Source: an uncultured Croceitalea sp. (GTDB lineage: Bacteria > Bacteroidota > Bacteroidia > Flavobacteriales > Flavobacteriaceae). From it: a stretch of 64,000 bases of DNA. Numbering within the stretch: position 1 is the first letter of the stretch; every line of letters starts with the position of its first letter. A model generated the notes under the pieces. The model did not search any database. It saw only the letters and a program-made list of their open reading frames with translations, and had not been told where the DNA came from. The stretch spans positions 434,001 to 498,000 of the forward strand of contig CANLXH010000002.1 in assembly GCA_947495075.1 (NCBI GenBank), written 5' to 3'. Positions 31,219-43,898 of the stretch are shown piece by piece. The translations under genes were made by a program, and so were the position numbers.

Positions 31219-32028
31219 CTATAGTTCTCTCACCCAAATATTGCGAAAGCTTACGCGACTATTGTCCCTATGATCTTGTAACTGTATAGGGGCTTTACCA
31301 TGAATTTCATACTTTGGCCAACCAATATATTTAATAGCACCTTCAATTTCAAAATGGTCTTGTATTAAAACCCCATTGTGTAAAACTGTAATATTTGCTG
31401 GTTGAAGTACTTTTCCACTTTTCCCAAATTGCGGTGCATGAAATATAATATCATACGTATTCCATTTTCCTGTTGGCACGGATGCCATTGCTAATGGAAT
31501 AGATTGTTTATATATTGCTCCGACCTGCCCGTTAGTATATGTTGGATTACCATTATTATCCAGTATCTGAACTTCATATCGTTGTTGTATAAAAACGCCA
31601 CTATTAGCTCTAGCTTGGCCTTCGTTAATAATCTCAGCTGGAGATTTCCACTCTAAATGCAATTGCATGCTTCCAAAATTTCTTTTAGTTTGTATAAATC
31701 CAGATTTATCTTTTACGGTCATGCTAGCGTCATCATTTATATGCCATTGTGCTGCGGTACTATCTGCAGCATTAATCCATTCGCTTAAATCTGTACCATC
31801 AAAAAGGACAATAGCATCACTTGGCACTCCATTATCATCTTGTGTAACTTTTGGCGGAACAGGCTCATAAACCTCAGTTGCTTCAGGAGTAGTTGGTTCC
31901 TCTCCTTGATATTTTTTGGTAACAGCTTTAGTTTCGCTATCGTCTATTGTTTGCGGTGTCGTCTTCGTATTTTCTTGACAACTGGATAAAATAAAAAGTC
32001 CTATTAAAACTAAGATGCCGTATTTCAT
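31219..32028 (-). CDS. DUF1080 (3-keto-disaccharide hydrolase family) lipoprotein
   Basis: A 269-residue lipoprotein (lipobox LFILSSCQEN, Cys near residue 17). A Pro/Thr/Glu-rich linker leads to a single DUF1080 domain (PF06439, concanavalin-like beta-sandwich) at about residues 75-268. Family landmarks are LFDGTDLSEWINA, ARANSGVFIQQRYEVQILDN, and the terminal IQLQDHRDNSRVSFRNIWVREL. The family includes enzymes that cleave glycosides already oxidised to 3-keto sugars. It lies 3 bp behind a second DUF1080 gene and is last in an operon headed by a TIM-barrel epimerase-like gene. The exact reaction is inferred. Confidence 0.88.
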   Translation of the reverse strand: MKYGILVLIGLFILSSCQENTKTTPQTIDDSETKAVTKKYQGEEPTTPEATEVYEPVPPKVTQDDNGVPSDAIVLFDGTDLSEWINAADSTAAQWHINDDASMTVKDKSGFIQTKRNFGSMQLHLEWKSPAEIINEGQARANSGVFIQQRYEVQILDNNGNPTYTNGQVGAIYKQSIPLAMASVPTGKWNTYDIIFHAPQFGKSGKVLQPANITVLHNGVLIQDHFEIEGAIKYIGWPKYEIHGKAPIQLQDHRDNSRVSFRNIWVREL

Positions 32029-32031
32029 TTA

Positions 32032-32778
32032 TTATAATTCTTTAATTTTTATATTTCGGTAAGACACAATATCTGCATGATCTTGCAAACCTATTCTCCC
32101 CGTTTTATACTTACCAAAACCTTCCCAACCATTAAACTTAGAATTCGTAATCATGGTATCCCAGACTTCACCATGGACAGGGAACTCTACCACCATTTCT
32201 CCATTTAATTTAGCATATCCTTTATTGGTTTTATGATTTACCATTAGCTCCACGGTATTCCATTCTCCAGCTGGCTTTACTGCTTCTGAACTACTAGGCG
32301 GAACCATATCATACAAAGCTCCAGCCTGTCTTGTAGGTCCGTTTTTAGCATCTGGATGCCTTTCGTTATCTAAAACTTGAATTTCTGGACCAGTCTCATA
32401 GGGTTTTACATATTTCTCATCTTCAAAAATTCCCCAAAAAATACCACTATTTCCTCCTTCAGAAATCTTCCATTCTAAAGAAAGTATAAAGTTGGTATAT
32501 TCTTTTTCTGTAACTATGTTATAACTTTCGTCATTTCTTTCTTTAGGTGGATAAAAAACCATAGCCCCGTTTTCCAACTTCCAAGGTTCGGTTACCTGTT
32601 CAGCACGATAATACTTCCATCCTTCAAAAGAATTCCCATCAAAAAGCATGGTCCACTCTTCTTTTTCGGATTTTAAATCGGTTTCAACTACCATTTCATC
32701 CTGCGTAATAGTTTTAGTCTTTTCTTTACAAGATGTAGTAATTAAAAATGTAATTAGAAGTATACTCAGTTTTTTCAT
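32032..32778 (-). CDS. DUF1080 (3-keto-disaccharide hydrolase family) lipoprotein
   Basis: A 248-residue lipoprotein (ITTSCKEK, Cys near residue 17) with one DUF1080 domain. Signatures: MLFDGNSFEGWKYYR, GGNSGIFWGIFEDEKYVKPY, GPEIQVLDNERHPDAKNGP and GRIGLQDHADIVSYRNIKIKEL. It differs clearly from the neighbouring DUF1080 protein, so the pair is not a recent duplication and probably differs in specificity. It lies 87 bp downstream of the epimerase-like gene on the same strand. A periplasmic role in cleaving 3-keto-glycosides is inferred from family and context. Confidence 0.9.
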   Translation of the reverse strand: MKKLSILLITFLITTSCKEKTKTITQDEMVVETDLKSEKEEWTMLFDGNSFEGWKYYRAEQVTEPWKLENGAMVFYPPKERNDESYNIVTEKEYTNFILSLEWKISEGGNSGIFWGIFEDEKYVKPYETGPEIQVLDNERHPDAKNGPTRQAGALYDMVPPSSSEAVKPAGEWNTVELMVNHKTNKGYAKLNGEMVVEFPVHGEVWDTMITNSKFNGWEGFGKYKTGRIGLQDHADIVSYRNIKIKEL

Positions 32779-32865
32779 GATTGTATATTTAATACTAAAA
32801 TAAGTTGGAAAGATTAGGTTACATTCTTTTTTCTACGAACGACATCTTTCAAGAGCATTATGGAA

Positions 32866-33918
32866 TTATATTCCTAATATTTTTTTCAGCATCTCTTTAT
32901 CTGTTTCTCCTCCTGCAAAATCATCAAAAGTCTTTTGTGTAGCTTCAATAATATGGTCTTGAATAAAAATAGCGCCCTCTCTAGCTCCTTGTTCTGGACT
33001 CTTAATCACACATTCCCACTCCATAACAGCCCAAACATCACACCCATATTGAGTTAATTTAGAGAATATGGTCTTAAAATCTATCTGGCCATCACCTAAA
33101 GAGCGGTATCTACCAGCGCGGTCTTGCCAATCGTTATATCCACCAAAAGCTCCCTTTTTACCTGTAGGGTTAAATTCAGAATCCTTAACATGAAAAGATT
33201 TAATAAACTCATGGTAATGGTCTATGTAGGTAATATAATCTAATTGCTGTAGCACAAAATGGCTTGGGTCATAAAGTATATTAACTCTTTTATGATTACC
33301 AGTAGCTTCTAAAAAACGTTCAAAAGTATCGCCATCATGTAAATCTTCGCCTGGATGAATTTCATAACAAACATCTACCCCTTCTTCATCAAAATGATTT
33401 AGAATAGGCATCCAACGTTTTGCCAATTCTTCAAACCCCATTTCAACTAGACCAGCTGGTCGTTGCGGCCATGGGTGCATAGTATGCCATAACAGCGTTC
33501 CTGAAAAGGTGGCATGCGCTGTTATTCCTAATCTACGACTTGCAGTAGCCGCTTTCTTAACTGTTTCTACTGCCCATTGTGTGCGTTCTTTAGGTTTACC
33601 TTTAAGATGGTCTGGCGCAAAATTATCGAACATTAAATCGTAAGCTGGATTAACAGCGACCAATTGTCCTTGTAAATGTGTAGAAAGCTCTGTTATTTCC
33701 AGCCCATAAGAGTTTACTTTACCTTTGAGTTCATCACAATAATCTTGACTCTCCGCTGCCTTATCTAAATCGATTAAAAAAGATTCCCAAGTAGGGATTT
33801 GTATTCCTTTGTATCCCAAATCTGATGCCCATTTGCACATTCCGTCCAAAGTATTAAATGGTGCTTTGCTATCTACAAACTGTGCTAAAAAAACCGCGGG
33901 GCCTTTAATTGTCTTCAT
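32866..33918 (-). CDS. Sugar phosphate isomerase/epimerase-like TIM-barrel protein
   Basis: A 350-residue cytoplasmic-type protein (no signal) of the xylose-isomerase-like AP-endonuclease-2 fold. Metal-ligand segments are visible: CYEIHPGEDLHDGD, NILYDPSHFVLQ, SFHVKDSEF and WAVMEWECVIKSPEQG. Many relatives act on inososes, hydroxypyruvate or 3-keto sugars; one group hydrates 3-keto-2-hydroxyglucal after DUF1080 cleavage. It heads the operon with the two DUF1080 genes and is divergent from a GMC dehydrogenase gene, which favours a 3-keto-sugar role. Confidence 0.88.
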   Translation of the reverse strand: MKTIKGPAVFLAQFVDSKAPFNTLDGMCKWASDLGYKGIQIPTWESFLIDLDKAAESQDYCDELKGKVNSYGLEITELSTHLQGQLVAVNPAYDLMFDNFAPDHLKGKPKERTQWAVETVKKAATASRRLGITAHATFSGTLLWHTMHPWPQRPAGLVEMGFEELAKRWMPILNHFDEEGVDVCYEIHPGEDLHDGDTFERFLEATGNHKRVNILYDPSHFVLQQLDYITYIDHYHEFIKSFHVKDSEFNPTGKKGAFGGYNDWQDRAGRYRSLGDGQIDFKTIFSKLTQYGCDVWAVMEWECVIKSPEQGAREGAIFIQDHIIEATQKTFDDFAGGETDKEMLKKILGI

Positions 33919-33969
33919 CTAAATTGTCTTTTATGTATTAGGTTACCTTAGAATTTTTGCTATAATCCA

Positions 33970-33988
33970 CTATATTTAAAGAATATAG
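33970..33988. promoter_or_regulatory. Inverted repeat between divergent sugar genes
   Basis: CTATATT (33970-33976) and AATATAG (33982-33988) are perfect 7-bp arms around TAAAG, in the 138-bp region between the epimerase-like gene (-) and the GMC gene (+). A further palindrome, ATTAGTACTAAT, lies at 34031-34042. Either could be an operator; AT-richness makes chance occurrence possible. Confidence 0.3.
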
Positions 33989-34056
33989 CAGAACTTTTAT
34001 TTTATGCAAAGTGAAGTTATAAATATAATGATTAGTACTAATTTAATACTACTGTT

Positions 34057-35760
34057 TTGAATCAAGATACTGTTTATGATGCCATTGTTGTTGGCACCGG
34101 AATAACTGGAGGATGGGCTGCCAAAGAACTTTGCGAAAATGGTTTAAAAACACTTGTTCTTGAACGAGGTCCTATGGTAAAACACATTCAGGATTATAAA
34201 ACCATGAATGATGACCCATGGGATTATCCATACAAAGGTGAATTATCAAGAGAGGATAAGAAAAAGTATCTAAAACAGTCACGAGTTGGATGGGCACCCC
34301 AAGATGATGTAAAACATTTTTTTGTGAACGATTTGGAACATCCATATCAAGAAACCAAACGTTTTGATTGGATTCGTGGTTATCATGTAGGTGGGCGTTC
34401 CCTAACATGGGGAAGGCAAAGTTATCGCTGGAGTGATATTGATTTTGAAGCAAATTTAAAAGAAGATATAGCAGTAGACTGGCCAGTTCGTTATAAAGAT
34501 ATTGCACCTTGGTATGATAAAGTAGAATCTTATATTGGTGTAAGTGGTGAAAAACTTGGTTTAAAACAATTACCAGATGGTCAATTTCTACCAGCAATGG
34601 ATTTAAATTGTGTAGAAAAAGACCTGCAGACCGCTATGCAGACAGGTTTTGAAGATGGACGCTTGTTAACTATTGGTCGTGTAGCTCATATTACAAAAAA
34701 TACTACCAAGTTTGAAGGGAGAGGCCCATGCCAGTATAGAAATAGATGTTGGAGAGGATGTCCTTTTGGTGGATATTTTAGTAGTAACTCCTCCACATTG
34801 CCAGCAGCAGAACGAACAGGTAATATGACCTTACGAGCTAACTCCATAGTTCATGAAGTTGTATATGATGAAAACACTAAAAAAGCTACAGGTGTTAAAA
34901 TTGTAGATGCCGAAACGGGTGAAAAAATAGAGTTTAAGAGTAAAATTGTCTTTTTATGTGCTTCAGCGATGGCGTCAGTAGGTATTTTACTGCAATCTAA
35001 ATCTAAAAGCTTCCCTAGCGGTTTGGGTAATAATTATGATGAAGTTGGTCGTAACATTATGGACCATCATTATCAATTAGGTGCATCCGCAAAAGTAGAT
35101 GGTCATTTAGATAAATATTATAAAGGTCGAAGACCAAACGGTTTTTATATACCTCGATTTGTAAATCTTGATGATAGTACAAAACGTACTAACTTTTTAA
35201 GAGGTTTTGGGTATCAAGGAGGTGCAGGGCGTGATAATTGGGGTGAAATGGTTGCAGAACTTGGCTACGGAGAAGCTTATAAAGAAGCTATGTTAAAACC
35301 AGGCGGATGGCAGATTGGAATGACAGGCTTTGGAGAAATGCTTCCACATCATAACAATAGAGTTACGCTAAGCAAGGATAAAAAAGATAAGTGGGGCCTG
35401 CCGCAACTGGATTTTGATGTAGAGTTTAAAGAGAACGAACTTAAAATGCGAGAAGCCATAAAAGAAGAAGCCGTTGCTATTTTAAAATCTGCTGGTTTTA
35501 AAAATGTAAACTCCTTTGATACGGAAACTGGCCCAGGTCTAGGCATACACGAAATGGGTGGAGCACGTATGGGTTGGAACCCGAGAACTTCTGTTTTAAA
35601 TAAAAACAACCAAATTCATGATGTCCCCAATGTTTATATAACAGATGGTGCATTTATGACTTCTGCTAGTTGTGTTAACCCTTCATTAACCTATATGGCT
35701 TTTACAGTCAGAGCTGCTAATCATGCGGCTGAACAATTTAAATTAGGTAAATTCGCTTAA
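34057..35760 (+). CDS. GMC-family FAD dehydrogenase with Fe-S motif
   Basis: A 567-residue GMC oxidoreductase. FAD-binding GTGITGGWAAKEL lies at about residues 13-25. A CX5CX3C cluster (Cys225, Cys231, Cys235; CQYRNRCWRGC) matches the 3Fe-4S motif of FAD-dependent glucose dehydrogenase catalytic subunits. The catalytic pair is His498 (GLGIHEMGGARMG) and Asn541 (CVNPSLTYMAF). It likely oxidises a sugar hydroxyl, passing electrons to a partner. There is no small-subunit gene next to it. The start must be TTG at 34057: an in-frame stop lies at 34039 and the first ATG comes about 40 codons in, after the FAD motif. Confidence 0.9.
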   Translation: MNQDTVYDAIVVGTGITGGWAAKELCENGLKTLVLERGPMVKHIQDYKTMNDDPWDYPYKGELSREDKKKYLKQSRVGWAPQDDVKHFFVNDLEHPYQETKRFDWIRGYHVGGRSLTWGRQSYRWSDIDFEANLKEDIAVDWPVRYKDIAPWYDKVESYIGVSGEKLGLKQLPDGQFLPAMDLNCVEKDLQTAMQTGFEDGRLLTIGRVAHITKNTTKFEGRGPCQYRNRCWRGCPFGGYFSSNSSTLPAAERTGNMTLRANSIVHEVVYDENTKKATGVKIVDAETGEKIEFKSKIVFLCASAMASVGILLQSKSKSFPSGLGNNYDEVGRNIMDHHYQLGASAKVDGHLDKYYKGRRPNGFYIPRFVNLDDSTKRTNFLRGFGYQGGAGRDNWGEMVAELGYGEAYKEAMLKPGGWQIGMTGFGEMLPHHNNRVTLSKDKKDKWGLPQLDFDVEFKENELKMREAIKEEAVAILKSAGFKNVNSFDTETGPGLGIHEMGGARMGWNPRTSVLNKNNQIHDVPNVYITDGAFMTSASCVNPSLTYMAFTVRAANHAAEQFKLGKFA

Positions 35761-35776
35761 CTAATCGTATTTATAA

Positions 35777-36241
35777 ATGGATAACGCTTCGGCTAGAAAC
35801 CTTTGGGGAGATTTTTTAGATAAACACACAGAATTTGCTTTTGAAAAAGCACCAGAAGTAGGTTATTTTGGAGATAATGAAAAAGATGCCAACGAATTGG
35901 CAAACTTAGTTTCCAAAGACATTAAAAGAGCAACTTCACACTCCTTATTAGGACTACAGTTACGTGAAGAATCTATGCCCAAAATTGGTGACTTCTTTGT
36001 CGTAACAGATTGGGCTGGAGAAGCCAAATGTTTAATACGAACTACATCTGTTAAATTATTACCCTATTTTTCAATTCATTCAGAACACGCTCGTTTAGAA
36101 GGTGAAGGTGATAAGAGTCTAGAGTATTGGAAAAAAGCACATTGGGACTATTATACTCGTGAACTTGAACCATTCAATAGAGTTCCAAGAGAAAGTATGA
36201 TTATTATTTTTGAACGATTCGAACTTTTATTCAAAAGATAA
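35777..36241 (+). CDS. ASCH domain protein
   Basis: A 154-residue soluble protein that is essentially one ASCH domain: DFFVVTDWAGEAKCLIRTTSVKLLPYFSI followed by LEGEGDKSLEYWKKAHWDYYTREL. The domain is related to PUA and thought to bind RNA or nucleosides; some members are nucleic-acid hydrolases. It starts 16 bp after the GMC gene and may be co-transcribed, but has no obvious link to sugar oxidation. Its stop is inside a hairpin (36238-36267) between convergent genes. Confidence 0.85.
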   Translation: MDNASARNLWGDFLDKHTEFAFEKAPEVGYFGDNEKDANELANLVSKDIKRATSHSLLGLQLREESMPKIGDFFVVTDWAGEAKCLIRTTSVKLLPYFSIHSEHARLEGEGDKSLEYWKKAHWDYYTRELEPFNRVPRESMIIIFERFELLFKR

Positions 36242-36267
36242 TGGCCACTCTTAAGAGCAGCCATTAT
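36238..36267. terminator. Hairpin between convergent genes
   Basis: ATAATGGC (36238-36245) pairs with GCCATTAT (36260-36267), and an inner CTCTTAAGAG palindrome extends the stem. It overlaps the ASCH stop codon and lies about 30 bp from the end of the convergent oxidoreductase gene. T runs are short, so termination would be modest. Confidence 0.5.
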
Positions 36268-36297
36268 TGTATTTGAGGCGAGGTGTAAGAATAGAAA

Positions 36298-37434
36298 CTA
36301 ATCCAAATCTATCCAAACGTTTCCTTTTTTGTGTGATGCTACAGTGCTTTCGATAAAATTCATTCCATGTACGCCATCTTTCATCGTTGGAAATTCACCA
36401 CTGTTATACTTTTCTCCTCGGATTGCTTTTGCAGCCCCTAAATAAATATTTGCCATAGAATCAAAAATACCTTCTGGATGGCCTGGTGGTAACTTAGTTC
36501 CTGATAAAGAAAGCTCCGAATTATACGCATGCCCTGGCTTGTATACTTGCAAAGGCTCAGTATCACTTAGTTTGTATAAAAAATTAGGACGTTCTTGTTC
36601 CCATCTAAAAGCTCCTTTCTCACCATAAATAGCAATGGCTAACCCATTTTCCTCACCTGTCGCCACTTGACTAGAACGTATTACCCCTTTTACGTGGTTA
36701 TCCATTCGTATCAAAACTGTTCCATCTACATCCATTTGATTGTCTTCATAGAGATAGTTAAAGTCGCACAATAAAGATTTTATCTTTAGACCAGTGGTAA
36801 ATTCCACTAAATTAAATGCATGTACTCCAATATCACCCATACAGGAACTGATACCTGCTTTTGTTGGGTCTAAGCGCCAAACTGATGAACGTTTCTCTTT
36901 ATCATGAATAATGGTATTAATCCATCCTTGATAATATCTAGCGTCAACTTTATGGATTTTTCCTAAAGCACCTGCTTTTATCATTTCTCGCATTTGTCTT
37001 ACCATAGGATAACCAGTGTAAGTGTGCGTTAAGGCAAATACTTTTCCAGATTTTTCATGAGCATCTGCTAAAACTTTAGCCTCCTCATAATTCATAGTCA
37101 TCGGTTTTTCACAAATAACATGAAAACCATTATCCAAGAGCTTTTTAGCCATTGGAAAATGTAAAAAGTTAGGGGTCTGCACCGAACAAACTTGAATACG
37201 TTTATCTTCAGGAAGTTTTAGTTCTTCTTCAATAAGCATATCAAAATCTTTGTAGATTCTGTTTGTTGGAATATCAATCTCATGAGCAAAATCTATGCTC
37301 TCTTGATGCTCTGGACTAAATACAGCTCCAACAATTTCATAGTTATCATTAATTTGAGAAGCTACTCGATGTAAAATTCCAATTAATGAATCTCCTCCTC
37401 CTCCTAAAATTCCTAATCTTATTTTTTTTGGCAT
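36298..37434 (-). CDS. Gfo/Idh/MocA family oxidoreductase
   Basis: A 378-residue NAD(P)-dependent dehydrogenase. The N-terminal Rossmann fold begins LGILGGGGDSLIGILHR, followed by the family motif VICEKPMTMNYEEA (EKP) near residues 112-125. The C-terminal alpha/beta domain holds the substrate site (MGDIGVHAFNLVEF, catalytic His). No Tat signal is seen, so it works in the cytoplasm. It is the last gene of a five-gene minus-strand operon with two MFS transporters and an epimerase-like gene. Reduction or oxidation of a keto sugar or inositol-like compound is likely. Confidence 0.92.
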   Translation of the reverse strand: MPKKIRLGILGGGGDSLIGILHRVASQINDNYEIVGAVFSPEHQESIDFAHEIDIPTNRIYKDFDMLIEEELKLPEDKRIQVCSVQTPNFLHFPMAKKLLDNGFHVICEKPMTMNYEEAKVLADAHEKSGKVFALTHTYTGYPMVRQMREMIKAGALGKIHKVDARYYQGWINTIIHDKEKRSSVWRLDPTKAGISSCMGDIGVHAFNLVEFTTGLKIKSLLCDFNYLYEDNQMDVDGTVLIRMDNHVKGVIRSSQVATGEENGLAIAIYGEKGAFRWEQERPNFLYKLSDTEPLQVYKPGHAYNSELSLSGTKLPPGHPEGIFDSMANIYLGAAKAIRGEKYNSGEFPTMKDGVHGMNFIESTVASHKKGNVWIDLD

Positions 37435-37448
37435 TGTATTTCTAAATT

Positions 37449-38618
37449 TTATGCGGTTTCCGTTTTTCTTTTTTTCATATAAATATAGAGTCCAATAAAC
37501 GCTATTATTAAAATCGCAGGCAAAATGGACATTGTTCTTAGTGCCTCTGTTGCATTAGCATTGTCCATTAAATTCCCCATGACTGGTAAAACTACAGATA
37601 CAGACAACATTCCTGCACCTCCCATAATGGATAATCCAAGTGCTCCTGTCTCGGGAAGATATTCTGCTACAAAACCAAGCATAGTTGGCCAGAAAAAAGT
37701 AACCCCAACAGCAAAAACTGCTGCAGCAACAAAGATCATTCCTCCACTTGTAATAGTCAATAGCCAAAGACCAATAAATGTAAATACCGCTGAAAATAAT
37801 AGCATCCCAGCTGGTTGCAACTTATGGATTACTTGACCAGCAGATGCGCGACCAATTGCCATAATTCCATTAATAAAAGCAAGGACTAATAAAGGTATCG
37901 CAACAGACTCTTTTAATAGAGATTCTATCCGCTGGGTAGTACCCAATTCAGATGCAGCCGTCAAAAACATACACAATACCATAAATATAAAAAGTGGCTT
38001 TCCTAAACTAGATAGCATCTTTTTCGTGCTTATTCCCATTTGCACACGTTCTGTAACAGGAAATTTTTGTCCTAAAAATAGAAATCCATAAATAATTAAT
38101 GGAATAAACAAGGCTCCCACCATAACTTGCCAGCTAAGCCCCATAACATCCATAATTAGCCAACCAACTAAAGACCCTATAACTATTCCACCTGGAAACC
38201 AAACGTGGAACCTATTAAGCATTTTGGTCTTATTTTCAGTATACATAGAGGCAATCATTGGATTCAATGCTGCTTCAACCATACCATTACCTATACCAAC
38301 AAAAAGTGTGGCAATAAAAAGTGAGGTTTGATCATTAGCCAAAATCGTCCAAACAATACCAATTGCATGAGTAATAAAAGCTATCCATGTTATTTTTTTA
38401 ATCCCTAAAGAATCAACTAAAGGTCCTCCTATTATCATAGCTAGGGTAAAGCCCCAAAAAGCAGGGGTAAAAGCCCATCCAATTTGTTCAAGCGTAAGTC
38501 CAACTCCTTCTGGTCCAAAAACACTTTCTAATCTTGCACGAATTGCAAAAGTCATAGCTGTTACTAAAAGTGCAACACAGGAAGCTATAAATAGTCTATT
38601 CTTATTAATGTTTTCCAT
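37449..38618 (-). CDS. MFS transporter (sugar-type)
   Basis: A 389-residue major facilitator protein with about 12 hydrophobic helices. The loop after helix 2 is visible as GGPLVDSLGIKKITW. The protein continues with FVGIGNGMVEAALNPMIASMY and FFWPTMLGFVAEYLPETGALG, reminiscent of fucose/glucose permease-type MFS proteins. It lies 14 bp upstream of the Gfo/Idh gene, in the putative sugar-oxidation operon. The substrate, perhaps an oxidised sugar, cannot be read from sequence. Confidence 0.88.
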   Translation of the reverse strand: MENINKNRLFIASCVALLVTAMTFAIRARLESVFGPEGVGLTLEQIGWAFTPAFWGFTLAMIIGGPLVDSLGIKKITWIAFITHAIGIVWTILANDQTSLFIATLFVGIGNGMVEAALNPMIASMYTENKTKMLNRFHVWFPGGIVIGSLVGWLIMDVMGLSWQVMVGALFIPLIIYGFLFLGQKFPVTERVQMGISTKKMLSSLGKPLFIFMVLCMFLTAASELGTTQRIESLLKESVAIPLLVLAFINGIMAIGRASAGQVIHKLQPAGMLLFSAVFTFIGLWLLTITSGGMIFVAAAVFAVGVTFFWPTMLGFVAEYLPETGALGLSIMGGAGMLSVSVVLPVMGNLMDNANATEALRTMSILPAILIIAFIGLYIYMKKRKTETA

Positions 38619-38644
38619 GTTTAATTTATCTGATTGTCAGTTGG

Positions 38645-39901
38645 TTATTGTTTGTACTCAATTTTTTCATTCTTAAAAGCCACGGCAAAAAGGATTGATA
38701 CCCCTAATGCGAAAAATGCCGGGAATTGCCAAATACTGGACCACTCATGCTTATTTTCCTCTATGAGATTTAAATCTGTAATTTGGCCTGCGACCCAAAA
38801 GCCAATAAGCATTCCTATTCCATAGGTAGCCAGGGTAATTAAACCTTGTGCTGCACTTTTATATTTTTCACCTGCTTTTGTATCAGTATATATTTGACCA
38901 GAAACAAAGAAAAAGTCATAACAAATTCCATGCAAAGCGATACCAACAAGCAACATAAAGGTAAGCTCACCAGCATTTCCATAAGCAAATAGCATATATC
39001 TTACCAACCATGCAACCATTCCTACCAATATGGTCTTTTTAAAGCCAAACTTTTTAAAGAAAAATGGCAAGAGCAGTAAAAACAGAGCTTCTGATATTTG
39101 TCCAATTGTCATCATTCCAGCTGGACCTACTTGCGAACCAAATACTCCAATAGAAGCCCCTATTTCCCCAAGGAATTGTCCTGCATGTTGATAATAGAAA
39201 GCTAAGGGTATACAAATTAGAATAGAAGCTATAAAAAAGGTTAGATAGTTTCGGTCTTTGAGTAATTTAAGAGCATCTAAACCAAGGATAGTTGACAATG
39301 ATACTTCTTCTCCTTTGGAAACTCTAGGTGGTGTTTTAGGTAGTGTAAAACTAAACACTCCCAATATGCTAGAAGCGATTGCTGTCATCAAAAAGGTATT
39401 TTTTAAAGCTCCACTTGCAATATTCTCAGGTGAGTCCCATTTAAACAGTACGCTAATGAAAATTAAGCCTGCAACTATCCAACCAATTGTGCCAAATACC
39501 CGAATAAAAGAAAACTCTTTTGACGGATCCTTCATTTGATTAAAGGACACAGAATTAACTAATGCTAAGGTTGGCATATACGCTATCATATAGCCAAAAA
39601 CATAGGGTATAAAAGCAGCAATGTCCGTCGCATTTGCCATTAGATACATTAGCCCTGCTCCTGCTAAATGCAAAACGCCTAAAATCTTTTCTGCGTTAAA
39701 ATACCTATCAGCAATTAGTCCAATAATAAAAGGTGCTATTATTGCACCCCAAGATTGACTGGAGTAGGCAAAAGCAATTTGGCTTCCATCTGCGCCCAAG
39801 GTGTTAGGTAAATAAATACCCATAGTCACAAACCAACCTCCCCAGATAAAAAACTCAAGGAACATCATTAAAGACAGCTGAAATTTGGTTTTAAAATTCA
39901 T
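38645..39901 (-). CDS. NupG-type nucleoside:H+ symporter family MFS transporter
   Basis: A 418-residue protein with about 12 membrane helices. The start MNFKTKFQLSLMMFLEFFIWGGWFVTMGIYL is typical of the NupG/XapB-like group in Bacteroidota. YMLFAYGNAGELTFMLLVGIALHGICYDFFFVSGQIYTD is the second family segment. E. coli members carry nucleosides, but Bacteroidota members often sit in sugar clusters with Gfo/Idh and epimerase-like genes, as here. It is 26 bp from the next MFS gene. Confidence 0.85.
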   Translation of the reverse strand: MNFKTKFQLSLMMFLEFFIWGGWFVTMGIYLPNTLGADGSQIAFAYSSQSWGAIIAPFIIGLIADRYFNAEKILGVLHLAGAGLMYLMANATDIAAFIPYVFGYMIAYMPTLALVNSVSFNQMKDPSKEFSFIRVFGTIGWIVAGLIFISVLFKWDSPENIASGALKNTFLMTAIASSILGVFSFTLPKTPPRVSKGEEVSLSTILGLDALKLLKDRNYLTFFIASILICIPLAFYYQHAGQFLGEIGASIGVFGSQVGPAGMMTIGQISEALFLLLLPFFFKKFGFKKTILVGMVAWLVRYMLFAYGNAGELTFMLLVGIALHGICYDFFFVSGQIYTDTKAGEKYKSAAQGLITLATYGIGMLIGFWVAGQITDLNLIEENKHEWSSIWQFPAFFALGVSILFAVAFKNEKIEYKQ

Positions 39902-39921
39902 ATAAAATTTAGTTAGTTGGA

Positions 39922-40365
39922 TTATCGTTTGTATGAAATGTAATCTAGATTTCCGGGCTCAACGTCGTTAGTCCTAAAATCTGCCAATACCTGCCCTCTA
40001 TGATGCGTTGAATGATTAATTATATGAAACAAGATATCTTTTAGCTCATTTGCAAACACACGTCCCTCTGTTGTTTCATAATCAACTCTTTTCTGAAAAT
40101 CATCACTATTTGTTATAATTTCAAATGTTGTTCGCTGATTCTCATAATGTATATCTTCCCATGTTTCCAATGGATGTATTTGCCAAACATCATATTTGTG
40201 CTCTTTCCCCAATAAACGCATATTCCAAATATGGTGCGCATTAAGGACATGACTAAAAAGAGAAACTGCTTTTTCAGGAACTTCTTTTAGTTCCTTACAT
40301 TTTTCTATAAGATTCTTATTACAGTAAAAATTGTAATCGAATAATTGGTTAAATAACGTATTCAT
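39922..40365 (-). CDS. DinB-like family protein
   Basis: A 147-residue four-helix-bundle protein of the DinB/YfiT-like superfamily. Three metal-ligand histidines can be suggested: FSHVLNAHHIWNMRLLG near residue 40 and HIINHSTHHRGQ near 115-125. Such proteins bind metal and include thiol-dependent transferases; the name does not mean a DNA polymerase. It lies between the NupG-type transporter and the epimerase-like gene and is probably co-transcribed. The link to sugar metabolism is unclear. Confidence 0.85.
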   Translation of the reverse strand: MNTLFNQLFDYNFYCNKNLIEKCKELKEVPEKAVSLFSHVLNAHHIWNMRLLGKEHKYDVWQIHPLETWEDIHYENQRTTFEIITNSDDFQKRVDYETTEGRVFANELKDILFHIINHSTHHRGQVLADFRTNDVEPGNLDYISYKR

Positions 40366-40380
40366 ATATTAAAACTAGAA

Positions 40381-41385
40381 CTAAGTAAGCTCATCTATTG
40401 TTTTTAATAGTAGGTTCTTGGTTGCGATAATTCCTTCTTCTTCCCCTAATATATCTCCTTCATATTCCACTCCAACATAACCATTATATCCTGCATCTTT
40501 TACAATCTGCATCATTCTAACATAATCTATTTTAGCTTCATTCCCTTCCTTATCAAAATCATAGGTTTTAGCACTTACGGCTTTCGCAAAAGGCATTAAT
40601 TCCTGAACTCCTTGGTATTTGTCATACTCTTCTAGACATTTAGAATCATAATAAGACCCATTTTCTCTTACAACACAAAAATTCCCAAAATCCGGTAGCG
40701 TTCCACAATTATCCATGTTTACTTTTTGCATAACGGATGCAAGCCAAGAAGCATTAGAAGAAGGTCCTCCATGGTTCTCCACAATAATATTTATGTTTTT
40801 GTCTTTAGCATAAGTTGCTAGTTGCGTAAGACCATCTACTGATGCTTTAATCCAAGGTTCTTTCTCCATTGCTCCTTGAAGGTTTACCCGGATAGAATGA
40901 CACCCCATATCTGCAGCTGCATTTACCCACTTATAGTGGCTCTCAATAGCTTCTTTACGCTCTTTGGCATCAATAGCTGCTAAAGGGCCTTCACTATCAA
41001 TCATTATAAGAAGATTCGTTAATCCATATTTTTTTGCCTCAGCATTATTCTTAGCTACAAAATTTTGCATGGCTTCTTCGGAATAGTTAGTTTCTTCCAA
41101 CTCTGGCTTATATAGTTGACTCACATATTCTAATCCTGTGAAACCCCAAGATTTTGCTTTCTCAGCAAATCTGTATGGATTCATACCATCTCGTCTAATC
41201 ATTCTATTTATAGACCATTGTGCTAGTGATAATTTGAAAAAGGGAGTTGTATCTGGAATATTTATTGATTCATCAACATCAGTTTTAGACTTTTCTTTAG
41301 CACCATCTTTACAAGCATAGGCACCTAATAACGAGAAGGCAATTCCAGCTTTTGCACCGTTATGAATAAAGCTTCTTCTTTTCAT
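40381..41385 (-). CDS. Exported sugar isomerase/epimerase-like TIM-barrel protein
   Basis: A 334-residue xylose-isomerase-like TIM barrel with an N-terminal Tat-type signal (MKRRSFIHNGAKAGIAFSLLGAYAC); the Cys at about residue 25 could be lipidated. Putative metal ligands are ENHGG, TLPDFGNF, SAKTYDFD and VGVEYEGD. Unlike the relative at 32866-33918 it is exported, so it should act in the periplasm, where the GMC/DUF1080 enzymes also work. It is the first gene of the five-gene operon, with a candidate operator and promoter upstream. Confidence 0.88.
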   Translation of the reverse strand: MKRRSFIHNGAKAGIAFSLLGAYACKDGAKEKSKTDVDESINIPDTTPFFKLSLAQWSINRMIRRDGMNPYRFAEKAKSWGFTGLEYVSQLYKPELEETNYSEEAMQNFVAKNNAEAKKYGLTNLLIMIDSEGPLAAIDAKERKEAIESHYKWVNAAADMGCHSIRVNLQGAMEKEPWIKASVDGLTQLATYAKDKNINIIVENHGGPSSNASWLASVMQKVNMDNCGTLPDFGNFCVVRENGSYYDSKCLEEYDKYQGVQELMPFAKAVSAKTYDFDKEGNEAKIDYVRMMQIVKDAGYNGYVGVEYEGDILGEEEGIIATKNLLLKTIDELT

Positions 41386-41427
41386 GTTGATTATTTAGAG
41401 GTTGCGTCTACTAACTAAATTGCAATA

Positions 41428-41445
41428 TACTACAACGTTATAGTA
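41428..41445. promoter_or_regulatory. LacI/GalR-like operator candidate
   Basis: TACTACAACGTTATAGTA is an 18-bp palindrome around central CG with only one mismatched pair, the shape of LacI/GalR-family operators (AACGTT core). It lies between the candidate -7 element at 41471-41478 (-) and the start of the epimerase-like gene, where a repressor would block transcription. No LacI gene is in the window. Confidence 0.45.
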
Positions 41446-41470
41446 CAGATTTCTCAATAAACATAGGGAT

Positions 41471-41507
41471 TAAATGTAGAAAATTAATTTAATATTTAAT
41501 ACATTTA
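41471..41507. promoter_or_regulatory. Symmetric divergent -7 elements
   Basis: TAAATGTA (41471-41478) is TACATTTA on the minus strand; TACATTTA (41500-41507) is on the plus strand. Both match seven of eight TAnnTTTG positions and face away from each other, towards the epimerase-like operon and the GMC operon respectively. The plus-strand copy is 22 bp from the ATG at 41530. Confidence 0.4.
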
Positions 41508-41529
41508 GAGAATAAACAATCATGTATAA

Positions 41530-43245
41530 ATGAGTAAATTCTATTACAATGAAGAACAAGAATCGTATGATGCGATTGTTGTCGGAACTGGGATAAGTGG
41601 AGGTTGGGCTGCTAAAGAATTATGTGAAAATGGATTGAAGACTTTGGTCTTAGAGAGAGGCAGAATGGTGAAGCACCGAGAAGATTATCCAACTGCGAAT
41701 ATGGATACTTGGGATTTTCCACATAACCAGCAACCCACCAGAGAAGATGTTGCCAAGCAAGAAAAGCAAAACCGTACTGGCTATACAACAAGAGCCGCAT
41801 CTAAACATTGGTTTGTAAATGATATTGAACATCCATATAATGAAACCAAGCGTTTTGATTGGATGCGTGGTTATCACGTTGGTGGACGTTCTATCATGTG
41901 GGGAAGGCATAGTTACAGATGGAGTGATATAGATTTTGAAGCCAATAAAAAGGAAGGTATAGCCGTAGATTGGCCTGTACGCTATAAAGATATCGCACCT
42001 TGGTATGATAAGGTTGAATCTTACATTGGTATCTCAGGAGAACTTTTAGGCTTACCACAATTACCTGATGGACAGTTTACTCCAATGATGCCTTTAAATT
42101 GTGTGGAAGACCATGTAAAAGGTAAAGTCGCCGAGCATTTTGATGGGCGTGTGGTAACTGCTGGTCGCGTGGCTCATATTACAGGAGATAAAAAATTTGA
42201 AGGTGATGGGCGTTCTAAATGTCAATTCCGTAATAGATGTATAAGAGGCTGCCCTTTTGGAGCATACTTTAGTAGTGTGTCATCAACATTGCCAGCTGCT
42301 GAGGCTACAGGAAATATGACCCTTAGACCAGATGCTATTGTTCATGAAGTTATGTATGACCCTGATACCAAAAAAGCAACTGGTGTTAAAGTTATAGATA
42401 GAGTTACCAAAGAAGAATATGTGTTTAAAGCAAAAGTTATTTTCCTTTGTGCTTCAGCAATTTCATCTACTTCTATCTTAATGCAATCTAAATCTGACCG
42501 TTTTGAAAATGGTCTTGGCAATGATTCTGGAGAACTTGGACATAATATCATGGATCACCATTTTCAAGTTGGTGCTAGAGGTAAAGTAGATGGTTTCAAT
42601 GACAAATATTACAAAGGAAGAAAGCCAAACGGTATTTATGTGCCAAGGTTTAGAAATGTAGGAAGTAATACCATGAAAGATTTTACAAGAGGCTACGGTT
42701 ATCAAGGCGGTGCTGGAAGAGGAGAGTACGATGATATGGTTGCAGAGGCTACTTTTGGAAAAGAATACAAAGACACTATTCTTACTCCAGGAGGTTGGAA
42801 TATGAACATGTTAGCCTTTGGCGAAATTTTACCTTATCATGATAACAAGATGACCTTGGATTATGATAAGTTAGATCAATGGGGGCTCCCAACAGTGACT
42901 TTTGACGCTGAAATAAAGCAAAATGAACTTAATATGCGTAAGGATATGATGGACCAAGCAGTACAAATGCTTGAGAGATCTGGAGCTCGTGATATTGAAC
43001 CTTACGATAATCCATATGCAATTGGACTAGGAATACACGAGATGGGAACTGCTAGAATGGGTAGTAATCCTAAAACATCCGTTGTAAATGAGTATAATCA
43101 GGTACATGCATGTAAAAATGTTTATGTGACTGATGGTGCTTTTATGACTTCAGCAGCTTGTGTTAATCCATCTTTAACTTATATGGCCTTTACGGCAAGA
43201 GCTGCTAATCATGCTGCTCAAGAACTTAAAAAAGGAAATATCTAA
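41530..43245 (+). CDS. GMC-family FAD dehydrogenase, catalytic subunit
   Basis: A 571-residue GMC oxidoreductase, clearly homologous over its full length to the one at 34057-35760. FAD site: GTGISGGWAAKELC. Fe-S motif: Cys231, Cys237, Cys241 (CQFRNRCIRGC, CX5CX3C). Catalytic residues: His503 (GLGIHEMGTARMG) and Asn546 (CVNPSLTYMAF). It has no signal peptide; catalytic subunits of this class are exported by riding with the Tat-tagged small subunit, which is the next gene here (1-bp overlap). Likely activity: oxidation of glycosides, possibly to 3-keto forms. No cytochrome c subunit gene is nearby. Confidence 0.92.
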   Translation: MSKFYYNEEQESYDAIVVGTGISGGWAAKELCENGLKTLVLERGRMVKHREDYPTANMDTWDFPHNQQPTREDVAKQEKQNRTGYTTRAASKHWFVNDIEHPYNETKRFDWMRGYHVGGRSIMWGRHSYRWSDIDFEANKKEGIAVDWPVRYKDIAPWYDKVESYIGISGELLGLPQLPDGQFTPMMPLNCVEDHVKGKVAEHFDGRVVTAGRVAHITGDKKFEGDGRSKCQFRNRCIRGCPFGAYFSSVSSTLPAAEATGNMTLRPDAIVHEVMYDPDTKKATGVKVIDRVTKEEYVFKAKVIFLCASAISSTSILMQSKSDRFENGLGNDSGELGHNIMDHHFQVGARGKVDGFNDKYYKGRKPNGIYVPRFRNVGSNTMKDFTRGYGYQGGAGRGEYDDMVAEATFGKEYKDTILTPGGWNMNMLAFGEILPYHDNKMTLDYDKLDQWGLPTVTFDAEIKQNELNMRKDMMDQAVQMLERSGARDIEPYDNPYAIGLGIHEMGTARMGSNPKTSVVNEYNQVHACKNVYVTDGAFMTSAACVNPSLTYMAFTARAANHAAQELKKGNI

Positions 43246-43898
43246 TGGAAAGAAGATCAGCACTCAAAAACATGGGGATGGTATTTGGTTATGCCGTTGC
43301 CACTCCAACGCTATTAGGACTAGTACAAAGTTGTAAGGAAAAAGTTCCATTCGCTGAATGGGCGCCTAGCTATTTTGACAAGGATAAAGGTTATGCCTTA
43401 GCACAAATGGTTGATGTTATTTTACCAAAAACAGATACTCCTTCTGCCACTGAAGTTAATGTACATATATTTATAGATGAATTTGCAAAAAATGTTCTTC
43501 CTGAAGAGCAACAGGATTTTATGAATGTACTTATGGATAAATTCATGGGTAAAATCCTTACGGATTCTGGTAAAGATACCTTAGCAGATATAGAAGGTGT
43601 GGATTTTGAAGCTGCATTAACAAAATACCTAGCCAAACGTTCCGATGAAGATGAAGAAGCACATGGCAAAGCAATCGGCGAATATATGGAAGCGACTATC
43701 GGTGGTAAAGCAGCAGAATTAAATGAAGATGTTGCCTGTTACGAATTTGCCGGAAATATAAGAGGTATGGCAACTTGGGCTTACAAAACTTCCGAATATG
43801 TAGGTGAAGAAGTTCTTGCATACCTACCTTTACCTGGGGAATACATAGCTTGTGCAGATGTAAATGAACTAACACAAGGCAAAGCTTGGTCGCTATAA
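43245..43898 (+). CDS. Gluconate 2-dehydrogenase subunit 3 family protein
   Basis: A 217-residue small subunit (PF13618-type). The N-terminus MERRSALKNMGMVFGYAV is a twin-arginine signal (RRSALK) and ends in a possible lipobox Cys (GLVQSC, near residue 30). The mature part shows the family pattern LAQMVDVILPKTDTPSATEVNVHIFIDEF. In glucose and glucoside 3-dehydrogenases this subunit escorts the FAD subunit across the membrane and supports its folding. The gene starts on the last base of the GMC stop codon (TAATG), showing translational coupling, and a terminator follows. Confidence 0.92.
   Translation: MERRSALKNMGMVFGYAVATPTLLGLVQSCKEKVPFAEWAPSYFDKDKGYALAQMVDVILPKTDTPSATEVNVHIFIDEFAKNVLPEEQQDFMNVLMDKFMGKILTDSGKDTLADIEGVDFEAALTKYLAKRSDEDEEAHGKAIGEYMEATIGGKAAELNEDVACYEFAGNIRGMATWAYKTSEYVGEEVLAYLPLPGEYIACADVNELTQGKAWSL

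What the first reader, a model, noticed from the sequence alone, without database searches (positions are those of the whole stretch)
31219..43898. Candidate 3-keto-glycoside oxidation and cleavage locus in two divergent halves
Seen: two DUF1080 proteins, two TIM-barrel epimerase-like proteins (one cytoplasmic, one Tat-exported), two GMC dehydrogenases, a gluconate-dehydrogenase subunit-3 protein, a Gfo/Idh oxidoreductase and two MFS carriers within 13 kb. Known: GMC/subunit-3 complexes include glucoside 3-dehydrogenases, DUF1080 members cleave 3-keto-glycosides, and related TIM-barrel proteins act on the products. Inferred: glycosides are oxidised in the periplasm, cleaved by DUF1080 enzymes and imported by the MFS carriers. 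Having two of each main component suggests two substrate classes or stages. I know no description of this exact arrangement.
Basis: partly seen in the sequence, partly recalled or inferred. Interest (0 to 1): 0.75.

Follow-up and report, generated by a model that had tools for sequence, protein, structure and literature searches.

The report
Conserved 3-keto-glycoside breakdown gene cluster
This stretch of a flavobacterium genome carries one widely shared gene set that probably breaks down sugar-containing compounds by oxidising the sugar, splitting it off and repairing it to ordinary glucose, a route already known in other bacteria, with one extra dehydrogenase copy whose role is open.

Summary
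The decisive part was missed: the cytoplasmic TIM barrel matches end to end the solved 2-hydroxy-3-keto-glucal hydratase (8ro4, E 1.6e-163). That fills the published oxidation, elimination, hydration, reduction route of Agrobacterium; the Caulobacter lac cluster has similar parts. In 80 hydratase loci from other Flavobacteriaceae the hydratase, reductase, carrier and exported TIM barrel, where present, share one strand (80 of 80), and GMC2 diverges from them (70 of 70 with both). So it is one locus. ASCH sits between hydratase and reductase in 28 of 80; 13 of these also have GMC1, a paralogue 62-69% identical to GMC2 within a genome, patchily distributed and without its own subunit 3. Carrier and DUF1080 types substitute for each other rather than travelling as two sets. 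New member of a known kind. Open: why GMC1 is kept, what the carriers import, the substrates. No activity is shown.

The parts
31219..32028 (-). DUF1080a: exported lipoprotein (by eye), putative 3-keto-glycoside lyase/hydrolase (PF06439)
   Evidence: 136.1 bits, cut-off 26.8; closest solved relative 4qhz, E 3.2e-69; signal plus Cys at N-terminus (sequence printed)
32032..32778 (-). DUF1080b: exported lipoprotein (by eye), putative 3-keto-glycoside lyase (PF06439), 27% identical to DUF1080a
   Evidence: 153.4 bits; 14 solved sequences matched, 8rr2 among them at E 2.1e-33
32866..33918 (-). Cytoplasmic TIM barrel: 2-hydroxy-3-keto-glucal hydratase (HYD), by orthology
   Evidence: full-length match to 8ro4, 547 bits, E 1.6e-163; 64.6-68.9% identical to four relatives in similar clusters; single copy in the genome
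34057..35760 (+). GMC1: FAD dehydrogenase catalytic subunit, no signal peptide seen, TTG start, no subunit 3 next to it
   Evidence: 64.8% identical to GMC2; one clade of 25 rows; checked Cys, His and Asn sites intact in 25 of 25
35777..36241 (+). ASCH-domain protein, role unknown, between HYD and Gfo/Idh together with GMC1
   Evidence: present in 28 of 80 loci, 13 with GMC1 and 15 without
36298..37434 (-). Cytoplasmic Gfo/Idh/MocA oxidoreductase, putative 3-keto-glucose reductase
   Evidence: 34-41% identical to the reductases of four similar clusters; a Gfo match in 79 of 80 HYD loci
37449..38618 (-). MFS carrier (MFS1)
   Evidence: 45% identical to the carrier of the Pseudoalteromonas cluster
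38645..39901 (-). MFS carrier of the nucleoside-H+ symporter family (NHS)
   Evidence: 378.4 bits; 53% identical to the carrier of the Hymenobacter cluster
39922..40365 (-). DinB-family protein, role unknown, found mostly where ASCH is
   Evidence: in 27 of 28 ASCH loci and 2 of 52 others
40381..41385 (-). Exported TIM-barrel lipoprotein, putative periplasmic 3-keto-glycoside beta-eliminase
   Evidence: profile match to 4ovx (2.7e-111), DgpC1 (4.3e-13) and the chain of 7bvr/7drd/7exz (1.6e-11); fold rows 2-12 are DgpB-C, DfgA-B or CGD structures
41530..43245 (+). GMC2: core catalytic subunit of the putative glycoside 3-dehydrogenase
   Evidence: 55-58% identical to three GMC proteins of similar clusters and 33-46% to two others
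43245..43898 (+). Subunit 3 (Gluconate_2-dh3), RR signal plus Cys, presumed export and anchoring partner of GMC2
   Evidence: 72.6 bits, cut-off 23.4; RR in the first 30 residues of 81 of 81 homologues found in the fetched loci

Best explanation
One glycoside-utilisation locus of the oxidation, elimination, hydration, reduction type. (1) GMC2, exported with the Tat-type subunit 3, oxidises C3 of the sugar ring of glycosides in the periplasm (inferred from homology). (2) Membrane-anchored lipoproteins (DUF1080a, DUF1080b, exported TIM barrel) cleave the 3-keto-glycoside by beta-elimination or hydrolysis, giving aglycone and 2-hydroxy-3-keto-glycal or 3-keto-sugar (inferred). (3) One or both MFS carriers bring that product in (inferred from linkage and location only). 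(4) The cytoplasmic hydratase turns 2-hydroxy-3-keto-glucal into 3-keto-glucose (strong orthology, no assay). (5) The cytoplasmic Gfo/Idh enzyme reduces it to glucose (homology plus linkage). GMC1 and ASCH lie inside an otherwise continuous operon; GMC1 is a second catalytic subunit, perhaps widening substrate range while using the same subunit 3 (guess).
For: Hydratase identity. Four-enzyme route in A. tumefaciens with GMC plus Tat subunit, two TIM barrels and Gfo: PMC10628242 sections 7 and 14. Caulobacter lacABC with two DUF1080 proteins, two epimerases, a reductase and a transporter, with fitness data: PMC9007349 section 10. Linkage in 80 loci: Gfo 79, any MFS 76, exported TIM 74, any GMC 74, DUF1080 73, GMC2-type 72, subunit 3 65, all seven 59; one strand in 80 of 80 (L080 has the hydratase alone) and divergent GMC2 in 70 of 70. 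The group persists where yicC is not beside it: five checked parts in 24 of 32 such loci, against 41 of 48 with yicC. Hydratase, Gfo, GMC and subunit 3 lie together in Croceicoccus, Ketogulonicigenium, Pseudoalteromonas and Hymenobacter plasmids, with DUF1080 in the last two (loci picked by similarity to HYD or GMC2). Zobellia GMC enzymes of one clade are 53-58% identical to tested FAD glycoside oxidoreductases (PMC6950322 section 11).
Against: No activity is shown here for any of these proteins. The exported TIM barrel has no significant profile match to the hydratase (hhalign Probab 0.75, E 0.075), and in that weak alignment the position of the hydratase's His243 reads Ser271 (invariant in 45 of 45), so its metal site may differ. 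AtOGE (8BVK) is not among its 13 profile hits nor among the 50 fold rows shown of 471 with E <= 0.001. The predicted subunit 3 had no solved fold match (0 with E <= 0.001) and no sequence match. No cytochrome lies in the cluster, unlike LacABC; cytochrome-c domains occur elsewhere in the genome (9 matches, 7 over cut-off). The Catenovulum cluster has GMC, subunit 3 and DUF1080 but no gene annotated as hydratase-like isomerase or Gfo within 9 kb. In a Pedobacter, DUF1080 genes had no lactose phenotype, which its authors thought might be redundancy. 15 of 80 loci showed no subunit 3 and 7 no DUF1080 in the stretch read, several cut at its end.
Confidence: 0.82

Rival explanations
1. Two separate pathways side by side, each with its own dehydrogenase, DUF1080 enzyme, TIM barrel and carrier, for two substrate classes or stages.
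For: Two of each main part here; the two DUF1080 proteins are only 27% identical and the two carriers match different families.
Against: Parts do not travel as two sets: GMC1 occurs with DUF1080b alone and NHS alone (L053, L056), and DUF1080 and carrier types substitute for each other. HYD is single in the genome, and in 51 of 79 loci with Gfo the next matched gene after HYD is Gfo. GMC1 has no subunit 3 beside it.
Confidence: 0.1
2. Inositol or other polyol catabolism: TIM barrels as IolE/IolI-like enzymes and Gfo as inositol dehydrogenase.
For: Weak matches to the IolE model (HYD, 59.3 bits) and the IolG model (Gfo/Idh, 47.2 bits).
Against: Both far below cut-offs of 290 and 355, while the hydratase match is 547 bits over its whole length; DUF1080 and GMC/subunit 3 are not parts of inositol routes as I recall them.
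Confidence: 0.03
3. A C-glycoside or polyphenol-glycoside specialist: the exported TIM barrel works as a 3-keto-C-glycoside lyase.
For: Its profile and fold neighbours after 4ovx are DgpC/CGD C-glycoside deglycosidases.
Against: Only 15-19% identity in fold rows 2-12. Known CGEs engage a Tyr of a beta subunit (PMC10628242 Discussion) and no gene of the cluster was recognised as one, though no dedicated search was made. The described clusters most like this one act on O-glycosides.
Confidence: 0.08

Closest known systems
Agrobacterium tumefaciens GlycDH / AtOGE / AtHYD / Gfo operon (Bitter 2023, PMC10628242; abstract, sections 7 and 14 and passages read)
   Same: GMC dehydrogenase with a Tat small subunit, two TIM barrels, Gfo reductase; oxidation, elimination, hydration, reduction; the hydratase matches 8ro4 end to end (that 8ro4 is the Agrobacterium enzyme is recalled)
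   Different: Here the putative eliminase is an exported lipoprotein with no AtOGE match seen, DUF1080 lipoproteins are added, carriers are MFS type, and there are two GMC genes and ASCH and DinB genes
Caulobacter crescentus lacABC cluster (Price 2022, PMC9007349; section 10 and passages read)
   Same: Periplasmic dehydrogenase, two DUF1080 proteins (one said to have a signal peptide), transporter, two epimerases, reductase; LacA and DUF1080 also found together in Indibacter and Algoriphagus
   Different: No cytochrome gene in this cluster (LacB as the cytochrome is recalled); two GMC genes; substrate here unknown
Zobellia AA3 'clade A' GMC enzymes (PMC6950322; section 11 and passages read)
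   Same: Related marine Flavobacteriaceae; Zobellia loci carry orthologues of both GMC1 and GMC2
   Different: Section 11 treats single enzymes and names no cluster; which Zobellia genes it used was not matched here
PuCGE/DgpBC and CGD 3-keto-C-glycoside lyases
   Same: Nearest solved relatives of the exported TIM barrel after 4ovx
   Different: 15-19% identity in the top such fold rows, exported and lipidated here, no beta subunit recognised

Membership tests
Glycoside-utilisation locus (C3 oxidation, elimination, hydration, reduction) | GMC FAD dehydrogenase next to a Tat-type small subunit | tested here: met
   41530-43245 and 43245-43898 overlap by one base; Pfam over cut-off; RR in 81 of 81 subunit-3 homologues found
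Glycoside-utilisation locus (C3 oxidation, elimination, hydration, reduction) | Hydratase for 2-hydroxy-3-keto-glucal | tested here: met
   By sequence only: full-length match to 8ro4, E 1.6e-163
Glycoside-utilisation locus (C3 oxidation, elimination, hydration, reduction) | 3-keto-glycoside lyase | tested here: inconclusive
   Two DUF1080 proteins and a CGE-like exported TIM barrel; no activity known, and a possible metal ligand differs
Glycoside-utilisation locus (C3 oxidation, elimination, hydration, reduction) | Gfo/Idh 3-keto-glucose reductase | tested here: inconclusive
   Family match and linkage in 79 of 80 loci; not compared with the Agrobacterium enzyme itself, and the activity is not testable here
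Glycoside-utilisation locus (C3 oxidation, elimination, hydration, reduction) | Net conversion of a glycoside to glucose | not testable with these tools
   Needs enzymes or mutants
FAD-dependent glycoside 3-dehydrogenase (FAD-GO / LacA type) | Catalytic His of the GMC fold and FAD-binding Gly-rich motif | tested here: met
   His503 and one Gly of the N-terminal motif in 25 of 25 GMC1 and 92 of 92 other rows; Asn546 in 25 of 25 and 91 of 92, the other row having a gap. That these are the catalytic residues is recalled and from PMC6950322 section 11 (His493)
FAD-dependent glycoside 3-dehydrogenase (FAD-GO / LacA type) | Cys-rich Fe-S region as in fructose and glucose dehydrogenases | tested here: inconclusive
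   Cys 231, 237 and 241 are invariant (25 of 25, 92 of 92), but the adjacent second Cys of fructose dehydrogenase is Gln in 24 of 25 and 88 of 92; no cluster shown
LacABC-type complex | Cytochrome c subunit in the cluster | tested here: not met
   None among the 12 genes, and gaps between them are at most about 150 bases; one weak genome match, elsewhere, to the Hymenobacter cluster cytochrome
C-glycoside deglycosidase (CGE/DgpBC) | Partner beta subunit | not tested
   None of the 12 genes was recognised as one by Pfam, but no search with a beta subunit was made
Inositol catabolism (IolE) | Score over the IolE model cut-off | tested here: not met
   59.3 bits against 290

The most novel reading that the evidence does not exclude
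Because every putative cleaving enzyme is exported while the hydratase and reductase are cytoplasmic, the MFS carriers would be dedicated importers of 2-hydroxy-3-keto-glycals or 3-keto-sugars, a carrier class for which I know no characterised member; and GMC1 is an interchangeable second catalytic subunit that shares GMC2's subunit 3, a modular 'two heads, one anchor' dehydrogenase whose second head is repeatedly lost.
Probability: 0.25. Interest if true: 0.5.

Novelty: new member of a known kind. Interest (0 to 1): 0.33.

Why it matters
It suggests that the oxidation-first way of breaking glycosides, described in Agrobacterium and Caulobacter and in part in gut Bacteroides, is a common trait of Flavobacteriaceae: by my count of the rows, a full-length hydratase is in 101 of 199 sampled genomes of the family and 43 of 198 of a phylum sample. 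Surveys that count only glycoside hydrolases could miss it. The split between exported and cytoplasmic steps makes a concrete, testable claim about which intermediate crosses the inner membrane.

Tried and rejected
Rejected: two independent pathways (parts do not co-vary as two sets); inositol route; chance grouping. Led nowhere: solved relatives of subunit 3 by sequence or fold; a profile link between the two TIM barrels. Literature: searches of the open library. Searches returned nothing; in the others I saw the capped listings (titles and starts of abstracts) and opened only PMC9007349, PMC10628242, PMC13273386 (passages), PMC11345257 (passages) and PMC6950322. None that I saw describes this flavobacterial arrangement, but most listed papers were not opened, and the library lacks most subscription journals. 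The two papers most to the point, Kastner 2024 (10.1002/anie.202410681) and Nasseri 2024 (10.1038/s41586-024-07574-y), are not held: I know them by recall only, apart from the reference entry for the first in PMC13273386. PMC11345257 (Maribacter on laminarin) mentions one upregulated sugar phosphate isomerase/epimerase, which I could not match to this cluster. Not done: residue-level comparison with AtOGE, dN/dS, expression, a search for a CGE beta subunit.

Rows left out before counts: 102 of 199 genomes had a match; I set aside G092 (weak partial match), leaving 101. Of these the window's own is not in the set of 80, and 20 others (G197, G205, G101, G114, G115, G217, G132, G214, G071, G125, G203, G108, G064, G054, G144, G174, G165, G024, G169, G147) were not fetched, chosen before counting, partly for closeness to contig ends and partly for low rank. 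Identical GMC sequences were collapsed, 127 to 124 rows. The tally of 14 loci with a GMC1-type best hit includes L100, whose protein falls outside the GMC1 clade; 13 have GMC1 between HYD and ASCH. In one search the broken GMC1 of L120 was counted as present (20 of 40). The QDH counts and the 81 subunit-3 rows pool named and family loci without removing duplicates.
Full report
What is there. The window lies on contig C2 of a 3.73-Mb genome, and the loci most like it carry titles mostly of Flavobacteriaceae. Between yicC/gmk/nadD and the ribonucleotide reductase genes lie twelve genes (the names of these flanking genes are from reading the sequences). On the minus strand, reading right to left: exported TIM barrel, DinB, NHS carrier, MFS1, Gfo/Idh, then cytoplasmic TIM barrel, DUF1080b, DUF1080a. 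On the plus strand: GMC1-ASCH in the middle and GMC2-subunit 3 at the right end. Families were confirmed by Pfam.

The key identification. The cytoplasmic TIM barrel (32866-33918) aligns over residues 1-350 with 1-349 of 8ro4, named '2-hydroxy-3-keto-glucal hydratase', at 547 bits and E 1.6e-163. Bitter et al. (PMC10628242; abstract, sections 7 and 14 and passages read) describe in Agrobacterium a GMC dehydrogenase, an eliminase AtOGE, a hydratase AtHYD (then on preliminary evidence) and a Gfo reductase, and propose oxidation, beta-elimination, water addition and reduction. Price et al. (PMC9007349 section 10) describe in Caulobacter lacABC with two DUF1080 proteins, a transporter, two epimerases and a reductase, important for lactose use. 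The window holds the same kinds of parts except a cytochrome.

The other parts. GMC1 and GMC2 align over nearly their whole length with fructose and glucose dehydrogenase subunits. Three Cys and the catalytic-type His are conserved in 25 of 25 GMC1 and 92 of 92 other rows, the Asn in 25 of 25 and 91 of 92. DUF1080b matches 14 solved DUF1080 sequences, 8rr2 among them; DUF1080a matches chiefly 4qhz. A C-terminal QDH motif is kept in 74 of 75 DUF1080b relatives and 52 of 55 DUF1080a relatives at 43% identity or more. A Bacteroides lyase loses hydration activity in its H275N variant (PMC13273386, passages); that this His corresponds to the QDH motif is my inference from alignment positions and is not shown. 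The exported TIM barrel model is confident (mean pLDDT 90.4). After 4ovx its fold rows 2-12 are DgpB-C, DfgA-B or CGD structures, in line with its profile hits, though other sugar isomerases follow closely. Subunit 3 rests on its Pfam match and position; its model (pLDDT 82.6) matched no solved fold.

One locus, not two. I read about 9 kb either side of the hydratase in 80 of the 101 Flavobacteriaceae genomes that carry it full length (sampled 199). Within that reach: Gfo 79, a carrier 76, exported TIM 74, any GMC 74, DUF1080 73, GMC2-type 72, subunit 3 65; all seven together 59. Several absences are at cut ends of the stretch; one locus, L080, has the hydratase alone. Hydratase, Gfo, carrier and exported TIM, where matched over more than 200 residues, share a strand in 80 of 80 (L080 trivially), and GMC2 diverges beyond the exported TIM in 70 of 70 that have both. 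In 51 loci Gfo is the next matched gene after the hydratase, with gaps of 5-186 bases apart from one of 2765, consistent with an operon. Where yicC is not beside it, 24 of 32 loci still have all five checked parts, against 41 of 48 with yicC, so this is not just frozen synteny.

The insertion. ASCH occurs in 28 of 80 loci; in all 28 it is the next or next-but-one matched gene after the hydratase and before Gfo. Thirteen of these also have GMC1 before it and 15 do not. DinB is in 27 of 28 ASCH loci and 2 of 52 others. GMC1 sequences form one clade of 25 rows with SH-aLRT 100 (quick method, no bootstrap), and GMC1 and GMC2 are 62-69% identical within the same genome (19 genomes). On the GMC2 tree of 40 genomes GMC1 presence (20 of 40) needs at least 11 changes, 8 of them forced by well-supported branches. 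Together with the single clade and fixed position this suggests one gain and repeated losses; transfer between relatives is not excluded. Label shuffles reached as few changes in 44 of 500, so presence is barely clustered. Between genomes GMC1 is about as conserved as GMC2 (mean identity 79% against 81%, 171 pairs), so it does not look like a decaying gene where kept. The genome has three GMC genes and two subunit-3 genes, the third GMC having its own subunit 3 on another contig, so GMC1 lacks a partner of its own.

Mechanism and limits. GMC2 shows no signal peptide while subunit 3 has an RR signal with a Cys; co-export is the expected arrangement (recalled for this enzyme class). DUF1080a, DUF1080b and the exported TIM barrel carry lipoprotein-type signals by eye, while the hydratase starts directly with conserved fold (M1, G6 and P7 invariant in 23 of 23) and so does Gfo (the nucleotide-binding motif 5 or 6 residues after the start in 57 of 59 found). 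No signal predictor was run. So cleavage is placed outside and hydration/reduction inside, which means a 3-keto-glycal or 3-keto-sugar crosses the membrane. This is inferred from sequence, with no activity shown. Since a Bacteroides lyase can also hydrate, hydration could begin outside. Substrates are unknown.

Verdict. Real, well conserved, functionally coherent and essentially a known pathway. What is added here is the hydratase identification, the history of the operon, the second dehydrogenase without a partner, and the implied carrier substrate.

Noticed in passing
L104 6105-9400 (own genome, contig C1): A second GMC, subunit-3 and exported sugar-isomerase-like trio, nearest the Pseudoalteromonas type among the queries used (GMC 47% identical), with no hydratase in the 16-kb stretch; the genome's only hydratase is in the window, so the two loci may share it.
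   Followed up: partly
L105 6633-8164 (own genome, contig C1): Two further DUF1080 frames in opposite orientation (the second only 154 aa), with no GMC match in the 16-kb stretch.
   Followed up: no
L111 8423-10722: A Gfo/Idh gene with an RR signal plus an extra DUF1080 gene inserted between ASCH and the cytoplasmic Gfo in a Croceivirga MAG.
   Followed up: no
L112 9253-11114: A histidine-kinase-like and LytTR-type regulator pair inserted at the same spot in Flavobacteriaceae bacterium GF1 (names from reading the sequences, no family search).
   Followed up: no
20 of the 80 fetched loci, usually just after subunit 3 (for example L046, L047, L055): Another TIM-barrel protein, 40-48% identical to one in the Catenovulum cluster, not seen in the window.
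   Followed up: no
L029 and L120 (Maribacter litopenaei chromosome): Many genes of the cluster and its flanks, gmk and yicC among them, are broken into pieces, which looks like sequencing frameshifts rather than real decay.
   Followed up: no
window 35777-36241 and 39922-40365: ASCH and DinB proteins are tightly linked to each other in this cluster (27 of 28) with no obvious role in the pathway.
   Followed up: partly
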